DNA of 64,000 nucleotides, from positions 1 to 64,000 of the forward strand of contig JACPZW010000014.1 in NCBI GenBank assembly GCA_016195265.1, read 5' to 3'. The DNA is from Acidobacteriota bacterium (GTDB taxonomy: Bacteria > Acidobacteriota > Vicinamibacteria > Vicinamibacterales > CAVVIG01). Positions 1,794 to 64,000 of the stretch are shown here, in pieces. The position numbers were made by a program, and so were the translations under genes. The notes beneath the pieces are model-generated. The model made no database searches. It was not told the origin of the DNA and was given only the letters and a program-made list of their open reading frames with translations. The stretch's first letter is position 1, and each line of letters starts with the position of its first letter.

Positions 1794-1809
1794 GGTGGGC
1801 TCCTTCTGA

Positions 1810-1989
1810 CCTGGCGGGTCCGAAACGACCCGCCCTACGTGTTGACCCGGCGGGTCCGAAAGGACCCGCCCTACGTGGCGACCCGGCGGGTCCGAATGGA
1901 CCCGCCCTACGTGTTGACCCGGCGGGTCCGAAAGGACCCGCCCTACGTGGCGACCTGGCGGGTTCGAATGGACCCGCCCTGCGTACTGC
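1810..1989. repeat. five tandem 36-bp units, each a hairpin (GGCGGGTCCGAAaGGACCCGCC) plus CTACGT linker
   Basis: Direct reading; linkers alternate GTTGA / GGCGA, giving a 72-bp higher-order period. Confidence 0.97.
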
Positions 1990-11967: not shown

Positions 11968-12750
11968 ATGAACGTAGATCTGGAACGCCTCATCGCCCTC
12001 CAGCAGCTCGACTCGGCCGCAGACACGGCGCGGCGCCGGCTCGCTGAAGGCCCCGAGCGCGAGAAGGCGCTCGACGCGCGGCTCGAGACGGCGCGTCAAG
12101 GCGTGGCGGCGGCCAAGGAGCACCTGACGCAGAGCCAGCACGCGCGCCGCGAGCTCGAGAAGGAAGTCGCGGTGCACCAGGGCCGCCTCTCCAAGTTCCG
12201 CGACACGTTGATGGCCGTCAAGACCAACGTCGAATACCAGGCCGTGCAGAAGGAGATGGCGTTCGCGCAGGGCGAGGTGAAGTCCATCGAGGACAAGGTC
12301 CTCGAGCGCATGCTCGAAGCCGACGATCTGACTGCGGTCGTCAAGCGGGCCGAAGCCGAGCTTGCCGCGGAGCAAAAGGCGGTCGACGCGGACCGGCGCG
12401 CGATGAACGCCGAGCAGGCGGAGATGCAGGCGACGATCGACCGGATCACGGGCGAGCGCGGCGCCGTCGTCGGCGCCCTCGACAAACAGGTGCTCGCCAC
12501 GTTCGACCTGGTGTCGCGCAAGCGCAACGGTGTCGCCGTCGCCGAGGCGCGCGACGGCATCTGCACGATCTGCCACGTCCGCCTGCGGCCGCAGGTTTTC
12601 AACAGCGTCACGCGCAACGACGCCATCATCCAGTGCGACAGCTGCAACCGGATCCTCTATTACGTGCCAAAGACCGAGGTTCAGGGTTCAGGGTTCAACG
12701 TTCAGGGTTCTGGTTCAGCGGGTTCGAGTCCCGTCGACCCCGCCAACTAA
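11968..12750 (+). CDS. C4-type zinc ribbon coiled-coil protein; C-terminus runs into a repeat and tRNA fragment
   Basis: CTICHVRLRP...CDSCNRILYY, then EVQGSGFNVQGSGSAGSSPVDPAN*. Confidence 0.85.
   Translation: MNVDLERLIALQQLDSAADTARRRLAEGPEREKALDARLETARQGVAAAKEHLTQSQHARRELEKEVAVHQGRLSKFRDTLMAVKTNVEYQAVQKEMAFAQGEVKSIEDKVLERMLEADDLTAVVKRAEAELAAEQKAVDADRRAMNAEQAEMQATIDRITGERGAVVGALDKQVLATFDLVSRKRNGVAVAEARDGICTICHVRLRPQVFNSVTRNDAIIQCDSCNRILYYVPKTEVQGSGFNVQGSGSAGSSPVDPAN
12678..12717. repeat. short-word repeat GGTTCAGGGTTC, left arm
   Basis: aggttcagggttcagggttcaacgttcagggttctggttca. Confidence 0.85.
12718..12745 (+). other. 3' fragment of a tRNA-Asp gene (putative att scar)
   Basis: GCGGGTTCGAGTCCCGTCGACCCCGCCA: complete T-arm, 7-nt acceptor strand, G73 discriminator, CCA; no 5' half upstream. 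Confidence 0.75.
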
Positions 12751-12764
12751 AGGCTGAGCGTTCT

Positions 12765-13136
12765 TCATAAAGCTGTAGCGACCCGGTATCCGCAGTGTCG
12801 GACGTAGTTGGCGCACTCGGTGGGCGTGTACAAACCGAGCGCCACAGCGACGAGGGCACAGACCTGATCGAAACTGCGCGGTCGCGCGGCGCGCATGAAG
12901 GCTTTCAGCTTGGCGAACGCGAGTTCGATCGGATTGAAATCAGGACTGTACGGCGGGAGAAAACGGAGGTGCGCGCCGACCCGTTCGATCGCGGCGCGGA
13001 TCTCGGGCTGCTTGTGGACCGCGAGATTGTCGAGCACCACGACGTCCCCCTTATGCAGCGTGGGCACCAGGATCTGGGCAATTGCGTCAGAGGTTCGGTC
13101 GTCCTCGCCTGGTGCGCCGTGGCGTTTCGGGTTCAC
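12765..13136 (-). pseudogene. truncated IS630-family transposase (C-terminal DDE part)
   Basis: [10 protein letters not shown] ... [20 protein letters not shown] ... [12 protein letters not shown]-terminal half absent. Confidence 0.88.
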
Positions 13137-13818
13137 GAGAAGCTTGTTTCGATGGGCCTGCCGCAGCTCGACGGAGAACTCGACAAGATGCGTTTGGACC
13201 AGGGGATGATGTTCAAGCAGTTCAGTCGAGTCTACAAGGTCTCAACGAAACCGGATGTCCAGGAGATTCCGGACGCGCACCTGATTCTGTTGTGCCGGTT
13301 CTTGACGTACCTGGATGACACGGAATACACCTGAAGGGAGCTCTCGGCCTTCGCAATGGCTGTGGTCATCCGACCGGCTACCAGCCGGATCCTGTCAAGC
13401 TCCAAGCCTACTATGCCGACATCACTCAACTTGTGCTACTGAATCCAAAATTCGCGTAGGACCCGTTGGACCGTGGGTCAACGGATCGAAGCGGAGACGC
13501 GTTGGCCTGCAGATCCTCGTGACGAAACTGCCGCGACTTCGTCTTGGTTGGGCAGCTGGCAAACCCGCGAAGCTGGAGACATTTCACCTCGCGGAAAGTG
13601 AACAGCTGTTCTGGAAGGCCATGGCCGAGGCGGATGATCAAGACGAAAACCAATCGCAAGCGGTCGTTTTGGGCGCATTACTGGAGGGGAATCGCTCTTA
13701 CTTTGCTTCCTTGTACTCCGCAGCGATTTCCTGTTAAGGTTGACGTGCGCTGTCTATCCTCGACCAACGTAGGCAGAATTCCGCCGCAACGGCCAAGATA
13801 CTGTCCCGTCGTTTTCGT

Positions 13819-13847
13819 TTGACTTCTGATAGCACTGTGGCTCTAAT
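13819..13847 (+). promoter_or_regulatory. sigma70-like promoter for the 2TM-GAF gene
   Basis: TTGACT - 17 nt - TCTAAT, 20 bp before ATG 13868. Confidence 0.6.
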
Positions 13848-13867
13848 CACGACGACCCACAGTTTCG

Positions 13868-14746
13868 ATGACGGATCCAAACCCGAGCGGTGCCACTACG
13901 GTTGCCCGCACGTTGCCCCTCTCGCGGCTGCCACACATTATCGCGAGCTACGCCTATGTTTGGTGGTGGGTCCTTCGCGAGAATGCAAAATCCCGTTACG
14001 GAAGGTATTTGGATCACGGGACCAAGGCCCTTCTCACCCTCTATTTGCTGCTCCTTCTTCTCGAGGTTGGGCTCGAGATAAGCGGTCACTCTGTGGCGGC
14101 GACTGGATCCATCGCGCTTCAATTGGTGTTCTTCGTGCTGATCGCCATAGCCGTAATGTTCAAGGTCGAGGAATGGCGTGAGGGCAGACAGCAGGTCTAC
14201 TTCGCAGGTGCCGCTGCCGAGATCGTCTCGACGATGGGACGGATCCAGCCAGGTAACCGGGATGACGAAGTTATCACTCGGTTGCTCGCCATCTTTCAGA
14301 AGAACTTTGAGGCGCAAGGTGCGATTAATGCGAATCTGTCTCTGCCGGATGACGGAGACCAATTGAAGGTCCGATACGTCTATCCAGAAGGGGCTCCGTA
14401 TGATGACAAGCTCGCTCTGCCGAAAGGCGTCGGCGGCTCCGGCAACTGTTACGCCGAGCGCCGTCTCGTCTACATCCCAAGCAAACACTACCGACACGGC
14501 ATCATGGAGATCATCGATTCGCCGACACTCGAGGCTGCGGAAGGCGGGCAGGCAAGAAGTGTGGAAGCGCGATATCAACTGGTCCCGGACTGCTACGTTC
14601 CCTGCACGGTTGAGCCATTCGAGACAATTCTCTCAGTTCCATTGCTGGCGTACGACCATTGTTACGGAGTGCTCAATCTTGACTGCCGAGATCGCGACGC
14701 ATTCACCCGCCGAGACTTCCCACAGGCCATTTTTACGGGTTCGTGA
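13868..14746 (+). CDS. membrane-anchored (2 TM) GAF-like sensor protein; probable 3' frameshift (frame continues to 14808)
   Basis: Two N-terminal hydrophobic helices; GAF-like GGSGNCYAERR...FETILSVPLLAYDHCYGVLNLDCRDRDAFTRRDF. Confidence 0.75.
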   Translation: MTDPNPSGATTVARTLPLSRLPHIIASYAYVWWWVLRENAKSRYGRYLDHGTKALLTLYLLLLLLEVGLEISGHSVAATGSIALQLVFFVLIAIAVMFKVEEWREGRQQVYFAGAAAEIVSTMGRIQPGNRDDEVITRLLAIFQKNFEAQGAINANLSLPDDGDQLKVRYVYPEGAPYDDKLALPKGVGGSGNCYAERRLVYIPSKHYRHGIMEIIDSPTLEAAEGGQARSVEARYQLVPDCYVPCTVEPFETILSVPLLAYDHCYGVLNLDCRDRDAFTRRDFPQAIFTGS

Positions 14747-14818
14747 TGGCCTTGTACTTGCACGAGTCCCGAGCAGTTGCGGCGACTGCCGCCCCTCATG
14801 TAACTTAGGAGTCTGCGT

Positions 14819-15034
14819 ATGCCTGGACTAGCGGTCCCTGCGGGCTCGGGACTAAATCACCGCAGGAAAGAAACGTCGGAGCAGGTGCTCGAAACGACGG
14901 AACAGGTGCTTGAGCGCCTGGCACAACGCGCTGATCGAGTGACTAACGCTCGGCCGAGACTGTCCATCCGCAAGGTTCTCGAGTTGATTCATCTCGCCTA
15001 CACCGGGCGCCCCGCCAACCGTGTGGATATGTGA
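14819..15034 (+). CDS. 71-aa hypothetical protein paired with the GAF gene
   Basis: ORF preceded by AGGAG; same strand, immediately downstream. Confidence 0.6.
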   Translation: MPGLAVPAGSGLNHRRKETSEQVLETTEQVLERLAQRADRVTNARPRLSIRKVLELIHLAYTGRPANRVDM

Positions 15035-15089
15035 CACTCCAAGGGAGGCGCTAGCGATTCGTTAGCCAAGGGATGAACGTCTAGAGACA

Positions 15090-15121
15090 AAGGGCTCGGA
15101 AGGCCGGGCCCTTCTTGTTTT
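15090..15121 (+). terminator. Rho-independent terminator closing the GAF unit
   Basis: AAGGGCtCGG aagg CCGgGCCCTT cttgtttt. Confidence 0.65.
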
Positions 15122-15302
15122 GGCGCGGAACAAGGATTCAGGAGCGTGTTCAAGACCACGGACGATTCTGGAGGATTCGGGTAGACGCCAGCGGACGAAT
15201 CGCTTTAGGTAACCGATCGGGAACCAAACCCTTATCGCCAAAAGTCGCGCGCCATCACCCGCTTAGAAAACACGCGATTGGGGTTCGAACCCCGCGCCGT
15301 AG

Positions 15303-15356
15303 GCGCGAACCTGGAACCTCGAACCGAACCCTGAACCCGGAACCATGAACCAGGCC
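15303..15356. repeat. short-word repeat GAACCCTGAACC, right arm (inverse of 12678-12717)
   Basis: gaacctggaacctcgaaccgaaccctgaacccggaaccatgaacc. Confidence 0.85.
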
Positions 15357-15776
15357 CCCCTCGTTGCCTACATCGACGGCGGCGCGCGCGGGAATCCCGG
15401 ACCCGCCGCGTTCGGCGTCCGCGTCGAGCAGCCCGACGGCATGCTCGTCGAGGAATTCGGCGAGTCGATCGGCGTCGCGACCAACAACGTCGCCGAGTAT
15501 CGCGGTCTGCTGGCGGCGCTCGCGTGGGCGCGCGCGCACGGCCACCGCGGGCTTCACGTCCGTTCCGATTCCCTCCTGCTCGTGCAGCAGATGCTCGGGA
15601 ACTTCAAGGTAAAGAACGCGGGCCTGCAGCCGCTGCACGCGAAGGCGCGGCTGCTGGCGCACGAGATCGGCAAGGTCACGTTCGAACACGTCGGCCGCGC
15701 ATTCAACGCGCATGCCGATCGGCTGGCGAACGCGGCGATGGACGAGGAAAACTCAAAACTTAAAAGAGAAAACTGA
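15345..15776 (+). CDS. ribonuclease HI family protein
   Basis: YIDGGARGNPGPAAFG, NVAEYRGLLAAL, SDSLLLVQQ, HADRLANAA. Confidence 0.93.
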   Translation: MNQAPLVAYIDGGARGNPGPAAFGVRVEQPDGMLVEEFGESIGVATNNVAEYRGLLAALAWARAHGHRGLHVRSDSLLLVQQMLGNFKVKNAGLQPLHAKARLLAHEIGKVTFEHVGRAFNAHADRLANAAMDEENSKLKREN

Positions 15777-15838
15777 AAACCGAAGACTGTGCTTTCTCGC
15801 TTCACTTTTCAGTTTCAACTTTTGAGTTTTAACTTTCT
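15752..15838. repeat. AT-rich inverted repeat, word AACTGAAAACT
   Basis: aactcaaaacttaaaagagaaaactgaaaacc ... ttcacttttcagtttcaacttttgagttttaacttt. Confidence 0.9.
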
Positions 15839-16618
15839 GATGACTCCGGCGATTCTTCCAGCCCCTTTCCCGTCACGGCGATACGAGCACAGGACGTCTG
15901 CGTGACTCGCCGTGCAGAGCGCGGAGAGGTGGATGTTCGACGGCGCGAGCCGCGCGGCTTCGAGCTGATCGCACGCCGACCGCCAGCCGTCGAAATACCA
16001 ATGCGCTGGACGATCGCCGGGCCGAAACCAGGCGTCGATCTGCGCGCGTGAAAACCTCGCGCCTTCGAAACGCGCGCGGACGTCGGCGCCGACTTCGTAC
16101 CGCTCGGCACTGATGGACGGCCCGATCGCCGCGATGAGATCTTCCGGGCGGCTGCCGAATTCGCGCGTCAGGGCCTCGACCGCGGCGGACGGCACGCGAG
16201 CCGCCAGTCCGCGCCAGCCGGCGTGAGCCGCCGCCACGGCGCCCGTCTGTGTGTCGGCGATGAGCAGCGGGACGCAGTCCGCCGCCTGAATCGCCAGCGC
16301 CAGCGACGGGTCATTCGACACGATGATGTCGGCATCCATCACGTTGGCCGGACCGGCGCCCTCGCGGCAGATGATGACCGACGCGCCATGCACCTGGCGC
16401 ACACGCACAAGATGCCGGGGATCGACGTCGAGCGCGCCGGCGACTTGCTGCCAGTCCGCATCGGTCGCTGCGACCTGGGACCCAAGCGCCCACGCGCGCG
16501 TCGTAAAGAGGTGATGGGCGTGCGGCTCCAGCGCCCGGCACACGAGCGCGGGACCGGCAGGCGCTTGCACCCAGGCGAAACCGTCGGTAGGCTGAGGCAG
16601 CGTCAACGGCTCAGACAT
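15815..16618 (-). CDS. pgeF: PgeF/YfiH-family polyphenol oxidase (DUF152)
   Basis: VRQVHGASVII, ADCVPLLIAD, AAAHAGWRGLAA, IGPSIS. Confidence 0.93.
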   Translation of the reverse strand: MSEPLTLPQPTDGFAWVQAPAGPALVCRALEPHAHHLFTTRAWALGSQVAATDADWQQVAGALDVDPRHLVRVRQVHGASVIICREGAGPANVMDADIIVSNDPSLALAIQAADCVPLLIADTQTGAVAAAHAGWRGLAARVPSAAVEALTREFGSRPEDLIAAIGPSISAERYEVGADVRARFEGARFSRAQIDAWFRPGDRPAHWYFDGWRSACDQLEAARLAPSNIHLSALCTASHADVLCSYRRDGKGAGRIAGVIRKLKLKS

Positions 16619-46982: not shown

Positions 46983-47729
46983 ATGCGCCGCAGTGCACCG
47001 TACGCCTCGTCGTATTCGATCGGTCCGGGGCCGCTCTCGACCGTCATGAAGGCGTTGATCGGCGCCAACGTCGCCATGTTCGTCCTGACGACGCTCTTCC
47101 CGGCGCTCGTGGTGTGGCTGGGACTTGTTCCGGTGCAGGTGGTGCACGAGTTCCGCGTCTGGCAGCTCGTCACCTACATGTTTCTCCACGGCGGTCTGTT
47201 CCACATCCTCTTCAACATGCTCGCGCTGTGGATGTTCGGAACGGATCTCGAGCGGCGGTGGGGCTCGCGGTATTTCCTGAAGTTCTACTTCGTCACCGGC
47301 GCGGGCGCGGGGGCCCTGACGGTGCTGTTTTCGCTGCTGCCGTTCGGCTTCGCGCAGCAGGTCCACTATTCAGTGGTCATCGGCGCGTCTGGCGCGGTCT
47401 ACGGGCTGCTGCTCGCCTACGCGCTGTACTTCCCGGACCGCCAGATCTACATGTACTTCGTGTTCCCGATCCCGGTGCGGGTGTTCGTGACGATCATGGG
47501 CGCGATCGCGCTGTATTCGTCGCTCGGCGAATCGGGCGGCGTCGCCAACGCCACGCATCTCGGCGGGCTGCTCGTGGCCTACTTGTATCTGAAGTCCGGG
47601 CGGATGACCTTGTCGCCGTTTGCGGAAGTGAAGTACCGCTACGTGAAGTGGAGAATCAATCGCCTGCGCAAGAAGTTCGACGTCGTGTCAGGCGGAAGGT
47701 CGAACGACTGGAACGGGCGCGTTCACTAG
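46983..47729 (+). CDS. rhomboid family intramembrane serine protease
   Basis: HGGLFHILFNMLALW, GASGAVYG, HLGG. Confidence 0.93.
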   Translation: MRRSAPYASSYSIGPGPLSTVMKALIGANVAMFVLTTLFPALVVWLGLVPVQVVHEFRVWQLVTYMFLHGGLFHILFNMLALWMFGTDLERRWGSRYFLKFYFVTGAGAGALTVLFSLLPFGFAQQVHYSVVIGASGAVYGLLLAYALYFPDRQIYMYFVFPIPVRVFVTIMGAIALYSSLGESGGVANATHLGGLLVAYLYLKSGRMTLSPFAEVKYRYVKWRINRLRKKFDVVSGGRSNDWNGRVH

Positions 47730-47732
47730 AAA

Positions 47733-47835
47733 CCTGAAACTGAAAAAAGAAAAGTGAAAAGAGAAAACTGAAAACCGAAGCGTCCGCGCGCCTCGTGTGA
47801 CTCTTCACTTTTCAGTTTTAACTTTTAACTTCTTA
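47733..47835. repeat. AT-rich inverted repeat, word AACTGAAAACT
   Basis: gaaactgaaaaaagaaaagtgaaaagagaaaactgaaaacc ... cttcacttttcagttttaacttttaac. Confidence 0.9.
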
Positions 47836-48257
47836 CTTTTCTTCCCACCCGCCAGGGCGAGCGCGAGCGTGCTTCCCAGCACAGGCAGTCCGTAGCCGTT
47901 CGCCAGGAAGCTGTATTTGAAGATCGTACCGCCCGCGATCTGAAAGTTCAGCGCCATGAAGAACGCGACGAACGCCGCGAGCGGCGTCCAGAAGCCGGCG
48001 ATCATCGCCAGTCCAGCGCTCATCTCGCCGAGCGGCACGAGGCGCGCGAAGTACGCTGCGCCAGGCACGGCGATCGTCTGCAGGTACCACTGGCTGATCG
48101 ATCCGGCCGCCGCGGCCTTCGTCCAGCCCGACAACTGATCGGCCAGAAGCGACGAATTCGTGAACCAGCCGATCTTCCCAATCCCCTCGAAGACGAAGAA
48201 CACCCCGATGCAGATACGGAGGATCGTAATTCCGGCCCGCTGTCGATCGATCGCCAT
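47805..48257 (-). CDS. DoxX family membrane protein
   Basis: RICIGVFFVFEGIGKI, four hydrophobic segments. Confidence 0.88.
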   Translation of the reverse strand: MAIDRQRAGITILRICIGVFFVFEGIGKIGWFTNSSLLADQLSGWTKAAAAGSISQWYLQTIAVPGAAYFARLVPLGEMSAGLAMIAGFWTPLAAFVAFFMALNFQIAGGTIFKYSFLANGYGLPVLGSTLALALAGGKKSKKLKVKTEK

Positions 48258-56130: not shown

Positions 56131-58404
56131 ATGTCTCTGGCGAACTTCCGATCCGTCGCGGTTCTGGGCGCAGGCACGATGGGCGCGCAAATCGCCGCGC
56201 ACTTCGCGAACGCAGGCGTCCGGGTCACGCTGCTCGACGTCACGGCGGACGCCGCGCGCGACGGCCTCAAGCGGGCGCGGGGGCTGAAACCGGATCCGTT
56301 CTATACGTCCTTCACAGGGGACGCCGCGGCTCTGATCACGACCGGCGGACTCGACGGCGATCTCGCACCACTGGCAGACGCGGACTGGATCATCGAAGCG
56401 ATCGTGGAGCAACTCGACGTCAAACGCGCACTGCTCGCGCGCGTCGACGCCGCGCGCCGGCCCGGCACGCCTGGCACGCCTGGCACGATTGTTTCGTCGA
56501 ACACCTCCGGCATTCCCATCGCGTTGCTGGCCGAAGGACGGAGCGCGGATTTCCGGCGGCACTGGCTCGGCACCCACTTCTTCAACCCGCCGCGCTATCT
56601 CCATCTCCTCGAGGTCATCCCGACGGCGGACACCGATCCGGCAGTCGTCGCGCGCGTGACGCATTTCGCGGATCACCGCCTCGGCAAGGGCGTGGTCGTC
56701 GCGAAGGACACGCCGAATTTCATCGGCAACCACCTCGGCCTCTTCGGTGTCATCCAGGTGCTGCGCGCGCTGGAGTCCGGCGGCTTCACGATCGAAGAGA
56801 TCGACGCCATCACCGGACCGGCGATCGGCCGGCCGAAGAGCGCGACGTTCCGGACGATGGACATCGCCGGCATCGATATCCTGGGTCACGTGGCGCGCAA
56901 TCTCGCCGAGCGGCTTCCCGACGAGGAGGCGCGGCGCGCGTTCGTCCTGCCGCCGCTCGTCGCGGCGCTCATCGAGCGCGGCTGGATCGGTGAAAAGAGC
57001 GGACAGGGTTTCTACAAGCGGGAGAGAAAGGACATCCTCACGCTCGATCCGGCGACGATGACGTATCGCGCGAAGCAATCGGCGCGGCTGCCGGCGCTCG
57101 AAGCGGCGAAATCGATCGACGACCCGGCCGCGCGCATCAAGACGCTCTTCCTCGGCCGCGACAAGGTCGGGGACTTCCTGCGCCAGACCCTCGGGCCCAC
57201 GCTGCGCTATGCCGCGCGCGTTGCGCCCGAGATCGCGCATTCGATCGACGACGTCGATCGCGTCATGCAGTGGGGCTTCGGCTGGGAGCTCGGACCGTTC
57301 GAGATCATGGACGCGATCGGTCCGCATGAGGCGCTCGGCGACGTTTTCCCGAAGGGACGCACGAGTTTCCGCGACGGCCGCGTGCCGCCGGCCGCGCCGG
57401 ACCTGCAGATTCTGCGCTCGGCCAAGGATCGCGAGCGCGTCGTGAAACGCAACGCCGGCGCGAGCCTCGTCGATCTCGGCGACGGCGTCCTCGCCCTCGA
57501 ATTCCATTCGAAGATGAATGCGATCGGCGGCGACACCGTGCAGATGATGCACGCCGCCGTCAAGGAAGCCGCCGCGAATTTCTCGGCGCTCGTCGTCGGC
57601 AACGACGCGCCGAATTTCTCCGCCGGCGCGAACCTGATGCTCGTTCTGCTCGAGGCGCAGGAGGGTAACTGGGATGAAATCGATCTGATGATCCGCGCGT
57701 TTCAGCAGGCCACACAGGCGCTCCGCTTCGCCGACGTTCCGGTCGTCGTCGCGACCGGCGGCCTGACGCTCGGTGGCGGTTGCGAGATCGCGCTCCACGC
57801 CGATCGCGTGCAGGCGGCGGCCGAGAGCTACATCGGCCTCGTGGAGGTCGGCGTCGGCTTGATTCCCGGCGGCGGAGGAACGAAGGAAATGATCGCGCGC
57901 GCCGTCGAGCACGTCCCGTCCGCGCAGATCGACCTGCTGCCGTTCATGCAGCGCGTGTTCGAAACGATTGGATTCGCGAAGGTCTCGACGAGCGCCGCAG
58001 ACGCACGGCGGCTGGGATTCCTCGACGAAGCGGATCGCGTGACGATGAACCGCGAACGGTTGATGGCCGACGCGAAAGCGCTCGCGCTCGAACGCGTGAG
58101 TGAAGGCTATCAGCGGCCGTCGCCGCGAATCGCGATTCCCGTCGGCGGCGAGGGCGTGCTGGCGGCGCTCAAGCTCGGCGTCCACCTCGCGTGGCGCGCG
58201 GGACGTATCGGCGATCACGACGCGGTCGTCGGCAGGGCGTTGGCGAAGGTGCTGGCCGGTGGCAGCCTGCCGCACCAGACGACGGTCGGGGAACAGTACT
58301 TGTTGGATCTGGAGCGCGAAGCCTTTCTGAAGTTGTGCGGCGAGCCGAAGACGCTCGAGCGGATTCAGTACACGTTGAAGACGGGTAAACCGTTGCGAAA
58401 CTGA
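56131..58404 (+). CDS. fadB: bifunctional 3-hydroxyacyl-CoA dehydrogenase / enoyl-CoA hydratase
   Basis: VAVLGAGTMGAQIAAHFANAG; IPGGGGTKEM crotonase region. Confidence 0.93.
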   Translation: MSLANFRSVAVLGAGTMGAQIAAHFANAGVRVTLLDVTADAARDGLKRARGLKPDPFYTSFTGDAAALITTGGLDGDLAPLADADWIIEAIVEQLDVKRALLARVDAARRPGTPGTPGTIVSSNTSGIPIALLAEGRSADFRRHWLGTHFFNPPRYLHLLEVIPTADTDPAVVARVTHFADHRLGKGVVVAKDTPNFIGNHLGLFGVIQVLRALESGGFTIEEIDAITGPAIGRPKSATFRTMDIAGIDILGHVARNLAERLPDEEARRAFVLPPLVAALIERGWIGEKSGQGFYKRERKDILTLDPATMTYRAKQSARLPALEAAKSIDDPAARIKTLFLGRDKVGDFLRQTLGPTLRYAARVAPEIAHSIDDVDRVMQWGFGWELGPFEIMDAIGPHEALGDVFPKGRTSFRDGRVPPAAPDLQILRSAKDRERVVKRNAGASLVDLGDGVLALEFHSKMNAIGGDTVQMMHAAVKEAAANFSALVVGNDAPNFSAGANLMLVLLEAQEGNWDEIDLMIRAFQQATQALRFADVPVVVATGGLTLGGGCEIALHADRVQAAAESYIGLVEVGVGLIPGGGGTKEMIARAVEHVPSAQIDLLPFMQRVFETIGFAKVSTSAADARRLGFLDEADRVTMNRERLMADAKALALERVSEGYQRPSPRIAIPVGGEGVLAALKLGVHLAWRAGRIGDHDAVVGRALAKVLAGGSLPHQTTVGEQYLLDLEREAFLKLCGEPKTLERIQYTLKTGKPLRN

Positions 58405-58434
58405 AAACAGAAAAGTGAAAACAGAAAAGTGAAG
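58397..58434. repeat. AT-rich short-word repeat (AAACAGAAAAGTGA)
   Basis: gaaactgaaaacagaaaagtgaaaacagaaaagtgaag. Confidence 0.8.
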
Positions 58435-59199
58435 ACCGCGGAGCTGATCGATCGCGGCAACGGACCGGCGCTTGTGCTCATTCCCGGCATTCAGGGCCGG
58501 TGGGAGTACATGCGCCCGGCCGTCGACGCGTTGTCGCGCGTGTTCCGCGTCCTGACGTTTTCCCTGGGGTCGGATGATCTCGATGGGCACGCGGACGAGG
58601 TCAACGCCGCGTTACGACGCGCCGGCGTGGACCGCGCGGTGATCTGCGGCGTCTCGTTCGGCGGCATCGTCGCCGCGCGATTTGCCGCCGCGTACCCGGA
58701 GCGCACCAACGCGCTCGTGCTGGCGTCGGCGCCGGCGCCCGGCTGGCGCGTGCCGAGACGCCACCGGGTTTATGCGCAGCTGCCGTGGCTGCTTGGACCG
58801 CTGTTTCTCGTCGAGTCGCCGTGGCGCATGCGCGCGGAGCTCCGCGCGGCTTTTCCGGAGGGACGCACGCGGCGCGCGTTCAAGGCCTCGGTCCTGCGGA
58901 CGCTGTTGAGCGCGCCAATTTCGCTCGGGCTTATGGCCGCGCGCGCGCGGCTGATCGACGAGACCGACCTGCGTTCCGACTGCGCGCGCATCGACGCGCC
59001 GACGCTCATCGTCACGGGTGAACCCGCGCTGGATCACGTGGTTCCGGTCGAGAGCTCGCACGACTTCGTTCGACTGATTCGCGGGGCGCGCGCAGACGTC
59101 ATCGCCCGCACCGGCCACCTCGGATCGGTGACACGCCCGGACGCGTTCGTCGCGCTGGTCAGCAGATTCGTCGAAGGGACGCGTCATGCCGCTGCGTGA
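58429..59199 (+). CDS. alpha/beta hydrolase
   Basis: LVLIPGIQGRWEYM, ICGVSFGGIVAARFA; GTG start. Confidence 0.85.
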   Translation: MKTAELIDRGNGPALVLIPGIQGRWEYMRPAVDALSRVFRVLTFSLGSDDLDGHADEVNAALRRAGVDRAVICGVSFGGIVAARFAAAYPERTNALVLASAPAPGWRVPRRHRVYAQLPWLLGPLFLVESPWRMRAELRAAFPEGRTRRAFKASVLRTLLSAPISLGLMAARARLIDETDLRSDCARIDAPTLIVTGEPALDHVVPVESSHDFVRLIRGARADVIARTGHLGSVTRPDAFVALVSRFVEGTRHAAA

Positions 59200-63011: not shown

Positions 63012-63659
63012 ATGAATCGCATGCGTCGTCTTTCCCTACCCGCCCTACCTGTCCTACCCGCCCTTCCCGCCCTGTGCGCGCTCGCCCTCTTCATGGGCGC
63101 GTGCTCAACTGCCACGCTTCCCGACGCCAAGGACTACGCCGCCAAGCTGACCGCCGAGCGCGCGGCCAAGGACGCGGCGTTTGCCGCGAGTGACGATCCG
63201 GTCCCCGGGGTCCGCCACGCGGAACTGCTGCCCCTCGCCTACTTTCCGATCGACGCCGACTACGACGTGCCCGCGGTGCTGAAGCCCGCCGAGAGCAGCG
63301 CGCCGATGAAGATGCCCACGTCGACGGGCACGCAGCGCGACATGCGGCGCGTCGGCACGCTCGAGTTTTCACTCAAGAGCCAGCCGCTGAAGCTCACGGC
63401 GTTCGTCGAGGTGGGCGCGAAGGATTTGAATCGGCTGTTCGTGCCGTTCACCGACGCGACGACAGGGACGGAAACGTATCCCGGCGGACGGTATCTCGAT
63501 CTCGATCGCACGGCGACGAATCTCTACGACCTCGACTTCAACCGCGCGTACAACCCGTACTGCTACTTCAACGCCAGTTACGAATGCCCGTACCCGCCTG
63601 CCGAAAGCCGGCTGAAAGTTCCGGTCAGGGCGGGCGAGAAAGTTAAAACTGAAAACTGA
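63012..63659 (+). CDS. DUF1684 family lipoprotein
   Basis: Lipobox LFMGAC; FNRAYNPYCYFNASYECPYPPAESRLKVPVRAGEK. Confidence 0.85.
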   Translation: MNRMRRLSLPALPVLPALPALCALALFMGACSTATLPDAKDYAAKLTAERAAKDAAFAASDDPVPGVRHAELLPLAYFPIDADYDVPAVLKPAESSAPMKMPTSTGTQRDMRRVGTLEFSLKSQPLKLTAFVEVGAKDLNRLFVPFTDATTGTETYPGGRYLDLDRTATNLYDLDFNRAYNPYCYFNASYECPYPPAESRLKVPVRAGEKVKTEN

Positions 63660-63737
63660 AAACTGAAAACTTCGGACCGCAAGTTTTCACTTTCGAGTTT
63701 CACTTTTCAGTTTTCTCTTTTCAGTTTTAACTTTACT
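63640..63737. repeat. AT-rich inverted repeat, word AACTGAAAACT
   Basis: gttaaaactgaaaactgaaaactgaaaactt ... agttttcactttcgagtttcacttttcagttttctcttttcagttttaacttt. Confidence 0.92.
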
Positions 63738-63738
63738 C

Positions 63739-64000
63739 ATGCTCAAAGCGATCGTCTTCGACTTCGACGGCGTGATCGCGAACAGCGAGCCGCTGCACTT
63801 CCAGGCGTTTCGCGACGTGCTCGCCGGCGAAGGCGTGACGCTGACCGAGCAGGATTACTACGCGCGCTACCTCGGCTACGACGACCGCGGCGTCTTCAGG
63901 ATCGTCGGCGAGGAACGCGGCGCCGGCTGGACCGCCGCGCGCGTCAGCGAGCTGGCCGCGCGCAAGGCGGCGCGGCTCGAAGCCCTTGAGGCGATGGACC
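63739..64000 (+). CDS. HAD-superfamily hydrolase, beta-phosphoglucomutase-like (truncated by window end)
   Basis: MLKAIVFDFDGVIANSEPLHFQAFRDVL. Confidence 0.9.
   Translation, partial: MLKAIVFDFDGVIANSEPLHFQAFRDVLAGEGVTLTEQDYYARYLGYDDRGVFRIVGEERGAGWTAARVSELAARKAARLEALEAMD

What the first reader, a model, noticed from the sequence alone, without database searches (positions are those of the whole stretch)
15345..15838. RNase HI gene takes both its start and stop from word repeats; convergent pgeF takes its tail from the same hairpin
The rnhA ATG lies inside GGAACCATGAACC (repeat word) and its end ...EENSKLKREN* is encoded by aactcaaaacttaaaagagaaaactga. The opposing gene pgeF ends ...VIRKLKLKS*, encoded by the other arm of that hairpin. 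Both convergent proteins therefore end in Lys-rich tails from one element.
Basis: seen in the sequence. Interest (0 to 1): 0.72.

Follow-up and report, generated by a model that had tools for sequence, protein, structure and literature searches.

The report
Heptamer-word hairpins supply gene ends
In this bacterium the spaces between genes are often filled with hairpins built from seven-letter DNA words, and the rnhA gene has taken its start codon from one such element and its stop codon from another, which also ends the facing gene pgeF.

Summary
The only possible rnhA start (ATG 15345) lies in GGAACCATGAACC. The rnhA stop and last ~9 codons lie in the left arm, and the pgeF stop and last ~6 codons in the right arm, of an AAAACTG-word hairpin (15748-15837). 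Homology to relatives ends just before both tails, and relatives lacking the element have unrelated tails. (1) The GAACC array is the right arm of a second word hairpin, between a zinc-ribbon gene (COG1579-like) and rnhA. A ~2.5-kb insertion with an IS630-like fragment splits it; it is intact in a congener. (2) It is not peculiar to rnhA/pgeF: in 1.05 Mb of this genome there were 65 AAAACTG and 34 GAACC arrays (0 expected), 7 genes starting inside a CC[A/T]TGAACC word, and about 14 C-termini of the KTEN*/KREN* kind. (3) At orthologous junctions the hairpin often stays while the words are replaced. Tandem heptamer repeats overlapping gene ends and putting stops in all frames are published (TAACTGA, Beggiatoaceae), so the kind is known. 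The variant is the hairpin pairing, start-codon donation and word replacement. The likeliest role is an intercistronic or 3'-end stem-loop; the tails are by-products. Function was not tested.

The parts
15748..15837 (.). AAAACTG-word inverted element: left arm 15749-15785 (AAACTC-AAAACTT-AAAAGAG-AAAACTG-AAAACCG), right arm 15800-15836 (reverse complement words)
15345..15776 (+). rnhA-type RNase H gene (143 aa); start codon inside GGAACCATGAACC, stop codon inside the left arm
   Evidence: (PF13456 RVT_3 4.5e-19, PF00075 RNase_H)
15747..15776 (+). repeat-derived C-terminal codons of RnhA (..ENSKLKREN*)
15815..16618 (-). pgeF (polyphenol oxidase/laccase family) convergent with rnhA; stop codon in the right arm
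   Evidence: (PF02578 1.3e-56)
15815..15835 (-). repeat-derived C-terminal codons of PgeF (..KLKLKS*)
15307..15357 (+). CTGAACC-word array, right arm of the second element; contains the rnhA ATG and the first codons (MNQ)
12676..12727 (+). GGTTCAG-word array, left arm of the second element; encodes the C-terminal VQGSGFNVQGSGS of the upstream zinc-ribbon protein
   Evidence: intact counterpart in congener G002 = L011:1384-1515
11968..12750 (+). COG1579-like protein gene (CT398 coiled coil + C4 zinc ribbon) immediately upstream of rnhA in relatives
   Evidence: PF02591, PF24481
12728..15306 (.). about 2.5 kb insertion in the loop of the GGTTCAG/CTGAACC element; boundaries approximate; DDE_3 (IS630-like) fragment 12768-13241 (-), weakly GAF-like protein 13868-14746 (+)

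Best explanation
rnhA and pgeF are ordinary genes whose outer ends were rewritten by two intergenic word elements. Each element is an array of near-identical 7-nt words arranged as an inverted repeat, placed across a gene junction. Shown: the AAAACTG element lies between the convergent genes. Its words contain TGA, and because 7 is not a multiple of 3 a ribosome entering from either side meets a stop in whatever frame it is in, so each gene ends a few Lys/Glu/Asn-rich codons into the element. Shown: the right arm of the GGTTCAG/CTGAACC element carries the rnhA start, a one-base variant (CATG) of the usual CCTG word; congeners use ATG or TTG at the same place. Inferred: the arrays grow and change by slippage in 7-nt steps. 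Inferred: what is kept is a stem-loop at 3' ends and between co-directional genes (terminator, mRNA end or intercistronic insulator), and the peptide tails are tolerated by-products without function.
For: Homology stops before the tails and tails differ between relatives. The rnhA start lies in GAACC words in G000, G001 and G002, and apparently as TTG in G014. The same happens elsewhere in the genome: 21 of 889 genes have a GAACC array at the start, 7 of them with the start codon inside CC[A/T]TGAACC or a near variant; 18 gene ends were flagged as lying in AAAACTG words, about 14 of them of the KTEN*/KREN*/KTEK*/KLKS* kind. The period is 7 (61 intergenic windows), with 10 at lag 8 and none at lags 4, 5, 6 or 10. 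Arrays avoid divergent, promoter-only intergenic regions: 8 of 78 against 102 of 370, p = 0.0008. 26 of 27 inverted AAAACTG pairs have the A-rich arm first. An AAAACTG hairpin lies just downstream of the SRP RNA gene in G000 and G002. Hairpins persist at orthologous junctions: 10 of 16 hairpin junctions have a hairpin ortholog, against 1 of 16 non-hairpin junctions. In three cases both are hairpins with local sequence similarity of 0.11 or less (L078:6908, L108:7925, L088:12049).
Against: The rnhA/pgeF element does not match a consensus intrinsic terminator. T-rich arms often end 3-18 nt before the next start codon, an awkward place for a terminator. The left and right arms of one AAAACTG element are no more complementary to each other than to arms of other elements (mean rank 0.62), so there is no sign of selection for exact pairing. 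No transcript, ribosome-profiling or terminus data exist here. The sampled stretches were mostly chosen because they contain arrays, which biases frequencies but not orientations. Gene calls are from a home-made caller.
Confidence: 0.6

Rival explanations
1. Neutral debris: heptamer arrays arise by slippage anywhere, survive only where no gene or promoter is hit, and have no function. The hairpin is a by-product of copying between arms, and gene ends drift into the arrays.
For: Heptamer arrays are the commonest long simple repeats in many bacteria and polymerase slippage is the standing explanation (PMC4679880 introduction; PMC4692102). Own arms are not specially complementary. Presence/absence turnover between congeners is frequent (crude tally 22 both, 17 one only). 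Without the element, as in G001, G004 and G007, PgeF simply overlaps rnhA by about 56-59 nt.
Against: Hairpin persistence at orthologous junctions despite replaced words; fixed A-first polarity in 26 of 27 pairs; in co-directional regions A-sense arrays lie nearer the upstream END 25 against 5, and T-sense arrays nearer the START 17 against 3.
Confidence: 0.3
2. Translational-coupling bridge: between co-directional genes the hairpin starts at the upstream stop and ends at the downstream start, so folding brings stop and start together, or a ribosome translating the left arm exposes the start in the right arm.
For: In G002 the intact COG1579-rnhA element folds at -77.6 kcal/mol (z -10.5) with the rnhA start in the stem and the left arm inside the upstream coding sequence. 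Genes abutting arrays have SD-like motifs less often: 3 of 21 and 3 of 19, against 246 of 790.
Against: It cannot explain convergent pairs such as rnhA/pgeF. In the window the element is split by 2.5 kb, yet rnhA is intact. The SD difference is small in number.
Confidence: 0.15
3. A mobile palindromic element (REP/MITE-like) that inserts between genes and donates stop codons.
For: Many copies per genome, intergenic, inverted repeats; true REP-like palindromes (GGGTCCGAAAGGACCC) do occur in the same genome. Coxiella MITEs donate C-termini (PMC5896051).
Against: There is no fixed sequence or boundary: words, copy number and order differ in every copy, and arms are not reciprocal copies. Target duplications were not examined.
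Confidence: 0.08
4. Assembly or binning artefact in a metagenome-derived genome.
For: Short repeats assemble poorly; 87 contigs.
Against: The same elements occur at the same junctions in two further genomes of the genus with point differences.
Confidence: 0.02

Closest known systems
TAACTGA heptamer direct repeats of marine Beggiatoaceae, cyanobacteria and Bacteroidetes (MacGregor 2015, PMC4679880)
   Same: 7-nt direct repeats, mostly intergenic, many a few nt upstream of a start codon; forward repeats put stops in all three frames and overlap the stop of upstream genes in 13 cases; repeat-encoded residues lie at protein ends outside homologous regions; SD motifs rare.
   Different: Here many word families in one genome (AAAACTG, AACCCTG, AAATCTG, ACCAGCC and others), commonly paired as inverted arms forming hairpins, start codon inside the word, and words replaced at conserved positions. 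The Beggiatoa repeats are almost all direct and predicted unstructured.
Heptameric long simple sequence repeats: Xanthomonas GGGAATC, Nostoc GGGGA(C/T)T (PMC4692102) and, from memory, the STRRs of heterocystous cyanobacteria
   Same: Heptamer unit, intergenic, extensive length and sequence variation at conserved gene pairs.
   Different: Those are G-rich, single-word and discussed as G-quadruplexes, not hairpins.
REP/BIME elements and MITEs, e.g. Coxiella QMITE1/2 (PMC5896051)
   Same: Intergenic stem-loops overlapping gene 3' ends and adding C-terminal residues. IS insertion into such elements is known (title and abstract of PMC1525189) and resembles the insertion that splits the GAACC element here.
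   Different: Those have a fixed sequence; the word elements do not.

Membership tests
Heptanucleotide simple-repeat arrays (TAACTGA-type / long SSR) | tandem direct copies with a 7-nt period | tested here: met
Heptanucleotide simple-repeat arrays (TAACTGA-type / long SSR) | mainly intergenic location | tested here: met
Heptanucleotide simple-repeat arrays (TAACTGA-type / long SSR) | forward arrays within several nt upstream of start codons | tested here: met
   GAACC family; AAAACTG sense arrays sit at gene ends instead
Heptanucleotide simple-repeat arrays (TAACTGA-type / long SSR) | the word TAACTGA itself | tested here: not met
   words are AAAACTG/GAACCCT and others; TAACTGA is not among the words found
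Heptanucleotide simple-repeat arrays (TAACTGA-type / long SSR) | unit-length copy-number change by slippage | not testable with these tools
   no strain-level or read data
Intrinsic (Rho-independent) terminator | stable RNA stem-loop at a gene 3' end | tested here: met
Intrinsic (Rho-independent) terminator | G+C-rich stem followed by a T run | tested here: not met
   no consensus site at 15748-15837; the stem is A/T-rich with the T residues inside the right arm
Intrinsic (Rho-independent) terminator | transcription ends there | not testable with these tools
   needs term-seq
REP / MITE | conserved element sequence with fixed ends | tested here: not met
REP / MITE | target-site duplication or cognate transposase | not tested
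   element boundaries are too fuzzy to define

The most novel reading that the evidence does not exclude
The genome keeps stem-loops at fixed gene junctions but not their sequence. The words of both arms are replaced together (for example GGATTGC to GTAGGGC-type words), so selection or a hairpin-templated expansion process acts on structure and position, and it continually rewrites the start and stop codons of neighbouring genes.
Probability: 0.3. Interest if true: 0.8.

Novelty: new variant of a known kind. Interest (0 to 1): 0.55.

Why it matters
It shows a concrete route by which protein termini and start codons are created from repeats, visible by comparing three congeners, and it affects annotation: MNPEP- N-termini and -KTEN/-KREN C-termini are repeat products. 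If the word-swap reading holds, these junctions are natural experiments for separating the role of structure from that of sequence between genes, and for asking why 7 nt is the preferred unit.

Tried and rejected
Consensus terminators and promoters: none at the element. Rfam: only tRNA-Met in the window; SRP RNA and a cobalamin riboswitch in the other stretches searched. A named literature family for such hairpins in Acidobacteria: none found. tRNA-gene origin of the GGTTCGA stretches flanking the insertion: no tRNA there, not pursued. Specific complementarity of own arms: not found. One protein alignment failed on coordinates and was replaced by the junction analysis.

Full report
CHECK. rnhA (15345-15776) starts in GGAACCATGAACC (15339-15351) and ends NSKLKREN* in the left arm of an inverted repeat (arms 15749-15785 / 15800-15836, 78% complementary). 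The convergent pgeF (16618-15815) ends VIRKLKLKS* in the right arm. Pfam supports both identities. ATG 15345 is the only standard start codon available in frame.

TAILS. In 80 relatives, RnhA homology in the close orthologs covers about residues 1/6 to 134-138 of 143, and PgeF homology ends at about residue 261-264 of 267. The convergent rnhA/pgeF order is kept in most relatives examined, and the region beyond the conserved ..AMD (RnhA) and ..AIR (PgeF) differs in each. Congener G001 has no element: RnhA ends AARE* and PgeF runs on about 56 nt antisense into rnhA; G004 and G007 behave alike (59 nt). Congener G002 has its own, differently worded AAAACTG element, and RnhA ends EKLKT*. Others have different words at the same junction: a GAATTGAGAATGG hairpin in G056 (L037), and in G026 (L025) an array read in frame as SSVVSPQ repeats. 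So the element separates two genes that overlap in some relatives and gives each a new stop.

START. In G002 the region between the zinc-ribbon gene and rnhA is one intact inverted array, ggttcagggttcagggttcagcgttcaggg...ccctgaaccctgaaccctgaaccATGaaccctgaaccc, which folds at -77.6 kcal/mol, z -10.5. In the window the two arms lie at 12676-12727 and 15307-15357, separated by about 2.5 kb carrying a DDE_3 (IS630-like) fragment and a weakly GAF-like gene. The left arm encodes the tail of the zinc-ribbon protein (VQGSGFNVQGSGS). G001 starts with TTG in GAACCTTGAACCC; G014, from another genus, appears to do the same with TTG in GAACCTTGAGCCC.

THE GENOME. I sampled 1.05 Mb of the same genome in 61 stretches, mostly chosen around AAAACTG or GAACC hits, with my own gene caller. 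Tandem self-similarity is concentrated at lag 7 (61 intergenic windows, and its multiples), with 10 at lag 8 and none at lags 4, 5, 6 or 10 (on the first 764 kb). Word families include AAAACTG/AAAAGTG, AACCCTG, AAATCTG, ACCAGCC/ACCAGTC, AGCCCTC, AATCCGC and some octamers. AAAACTG arrays: 65 against 0 in a random genome; GAACC: 34 against 0. AAAACTG pairs are A-rich arm first in 26 of 27. In co-directional intergenic regions the A-sense arm is nearer the upstream end (25 against 5) and the T-sense arm nearer the downstream start (17 against 3). Arrays avoid divergent regions (8/78 against 102/370, p = 0.0008). Seven genes start inside a CC[A/T]TGAACC word or near variant, and about 14 C-termini are of the KTEN*/KREN*/KTEK*/KLKS* kind. 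The AAAACTG family is common in the genus (42, 41 and 15 pattern hits in G000, G001 and G002) and rare or absent in the other genera sampled. GAACC arrays occur in 14 of 80 relatives. A named scan finds AAAACTG arrays scattered over many phyla.

TURNOVER. At orthologous junctions between G000 and G001/G002, arrays were present in both in 22 and in one only in 17 (crude word count). Of 16 junctions with a hairpin (z below -3) in G000, 10 have one in the ortholog, against 1 of 16 non-hairpin junctions. In three cases both are hairpins with essentially unrelated sequence (L078:6908, L108:7925, L088:12049). Within the AAAACTG family, however, an element's own arms are no more complementary than arms of different elements, so exact pairing is not under evident selection. 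An AAAACTG hairpin follows the SRP RNA gene in G000 and G002.

INTERPRETATION. The tails and the start codon are by-products of word arrays invading gene junctions: well supported. That the arrays are kept as stem-loops at 3' ends and between genes is the best functional reading, but it is inferred; neutral slippage debris is the main rival. The all-frame-stop logic and the overlap of heptamers with gene ends were described for TAACTGA repeats (PMC4679880), and C-terminal extension by MITEs is known (PMC5896051), so the kind is known. The new aspects are inverted pairing, many words in one genome, start-codon donation and word replacement at fixed positions.

LIMITS.

Noticed in passing
window 12728-15306: Insertion of about 2.5 kb (IS630-like DDE_3 fragment, weakly GAF-like protein) inside the loop of the GGTTCAG/CTGAACC hairpin, flanked by TTCGA-containing stretches resembling a tRNA T-arm; congeners G001 and G002 have no such insertion.
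   Followed up: partly
window 47727-47839, 58388-58446, 63635-63742: Three further AAAACTG elements at gene junctions in the window; at 58404 congener G002 has a GAACC array instead (L318).
   Followed up: yes
L025 (G026) and L020 (G017): The rnhA frame continues into a downstream domain of about 150 aa with similar sequence in both; in G026 the linker is a heptamer array read as 7-residue SSVVSPQ-like repeats.
   Followed up: no
relatives G005, G025, G030, G042, G060, G061: PgeF homology is split near residue 200, suggesting in-frame extra sequence at one site of the protein in several genera.
   Followed up: no
window 1807-1984 and many intergenic regions: Abundant REP-like palindromes GGCGGGTCCGAAAGGACCCGCC, partly in tandem, with a GTAGG-like edge.
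   Followed up: no
L077:2144, L083:2756, L090:8025, L094:3354: Longer-word hairpins of CACGGAGGA type between genes, same architecture as the heptamer elements.
   Followed up: no
ACCAGCC-family arrays, e.g. L089:9436-9493: The array GGTGGCTGGTGG contains the E. coli Chi octamer GCTGGTGG in every unit; significance unknown.
   Followed up: no
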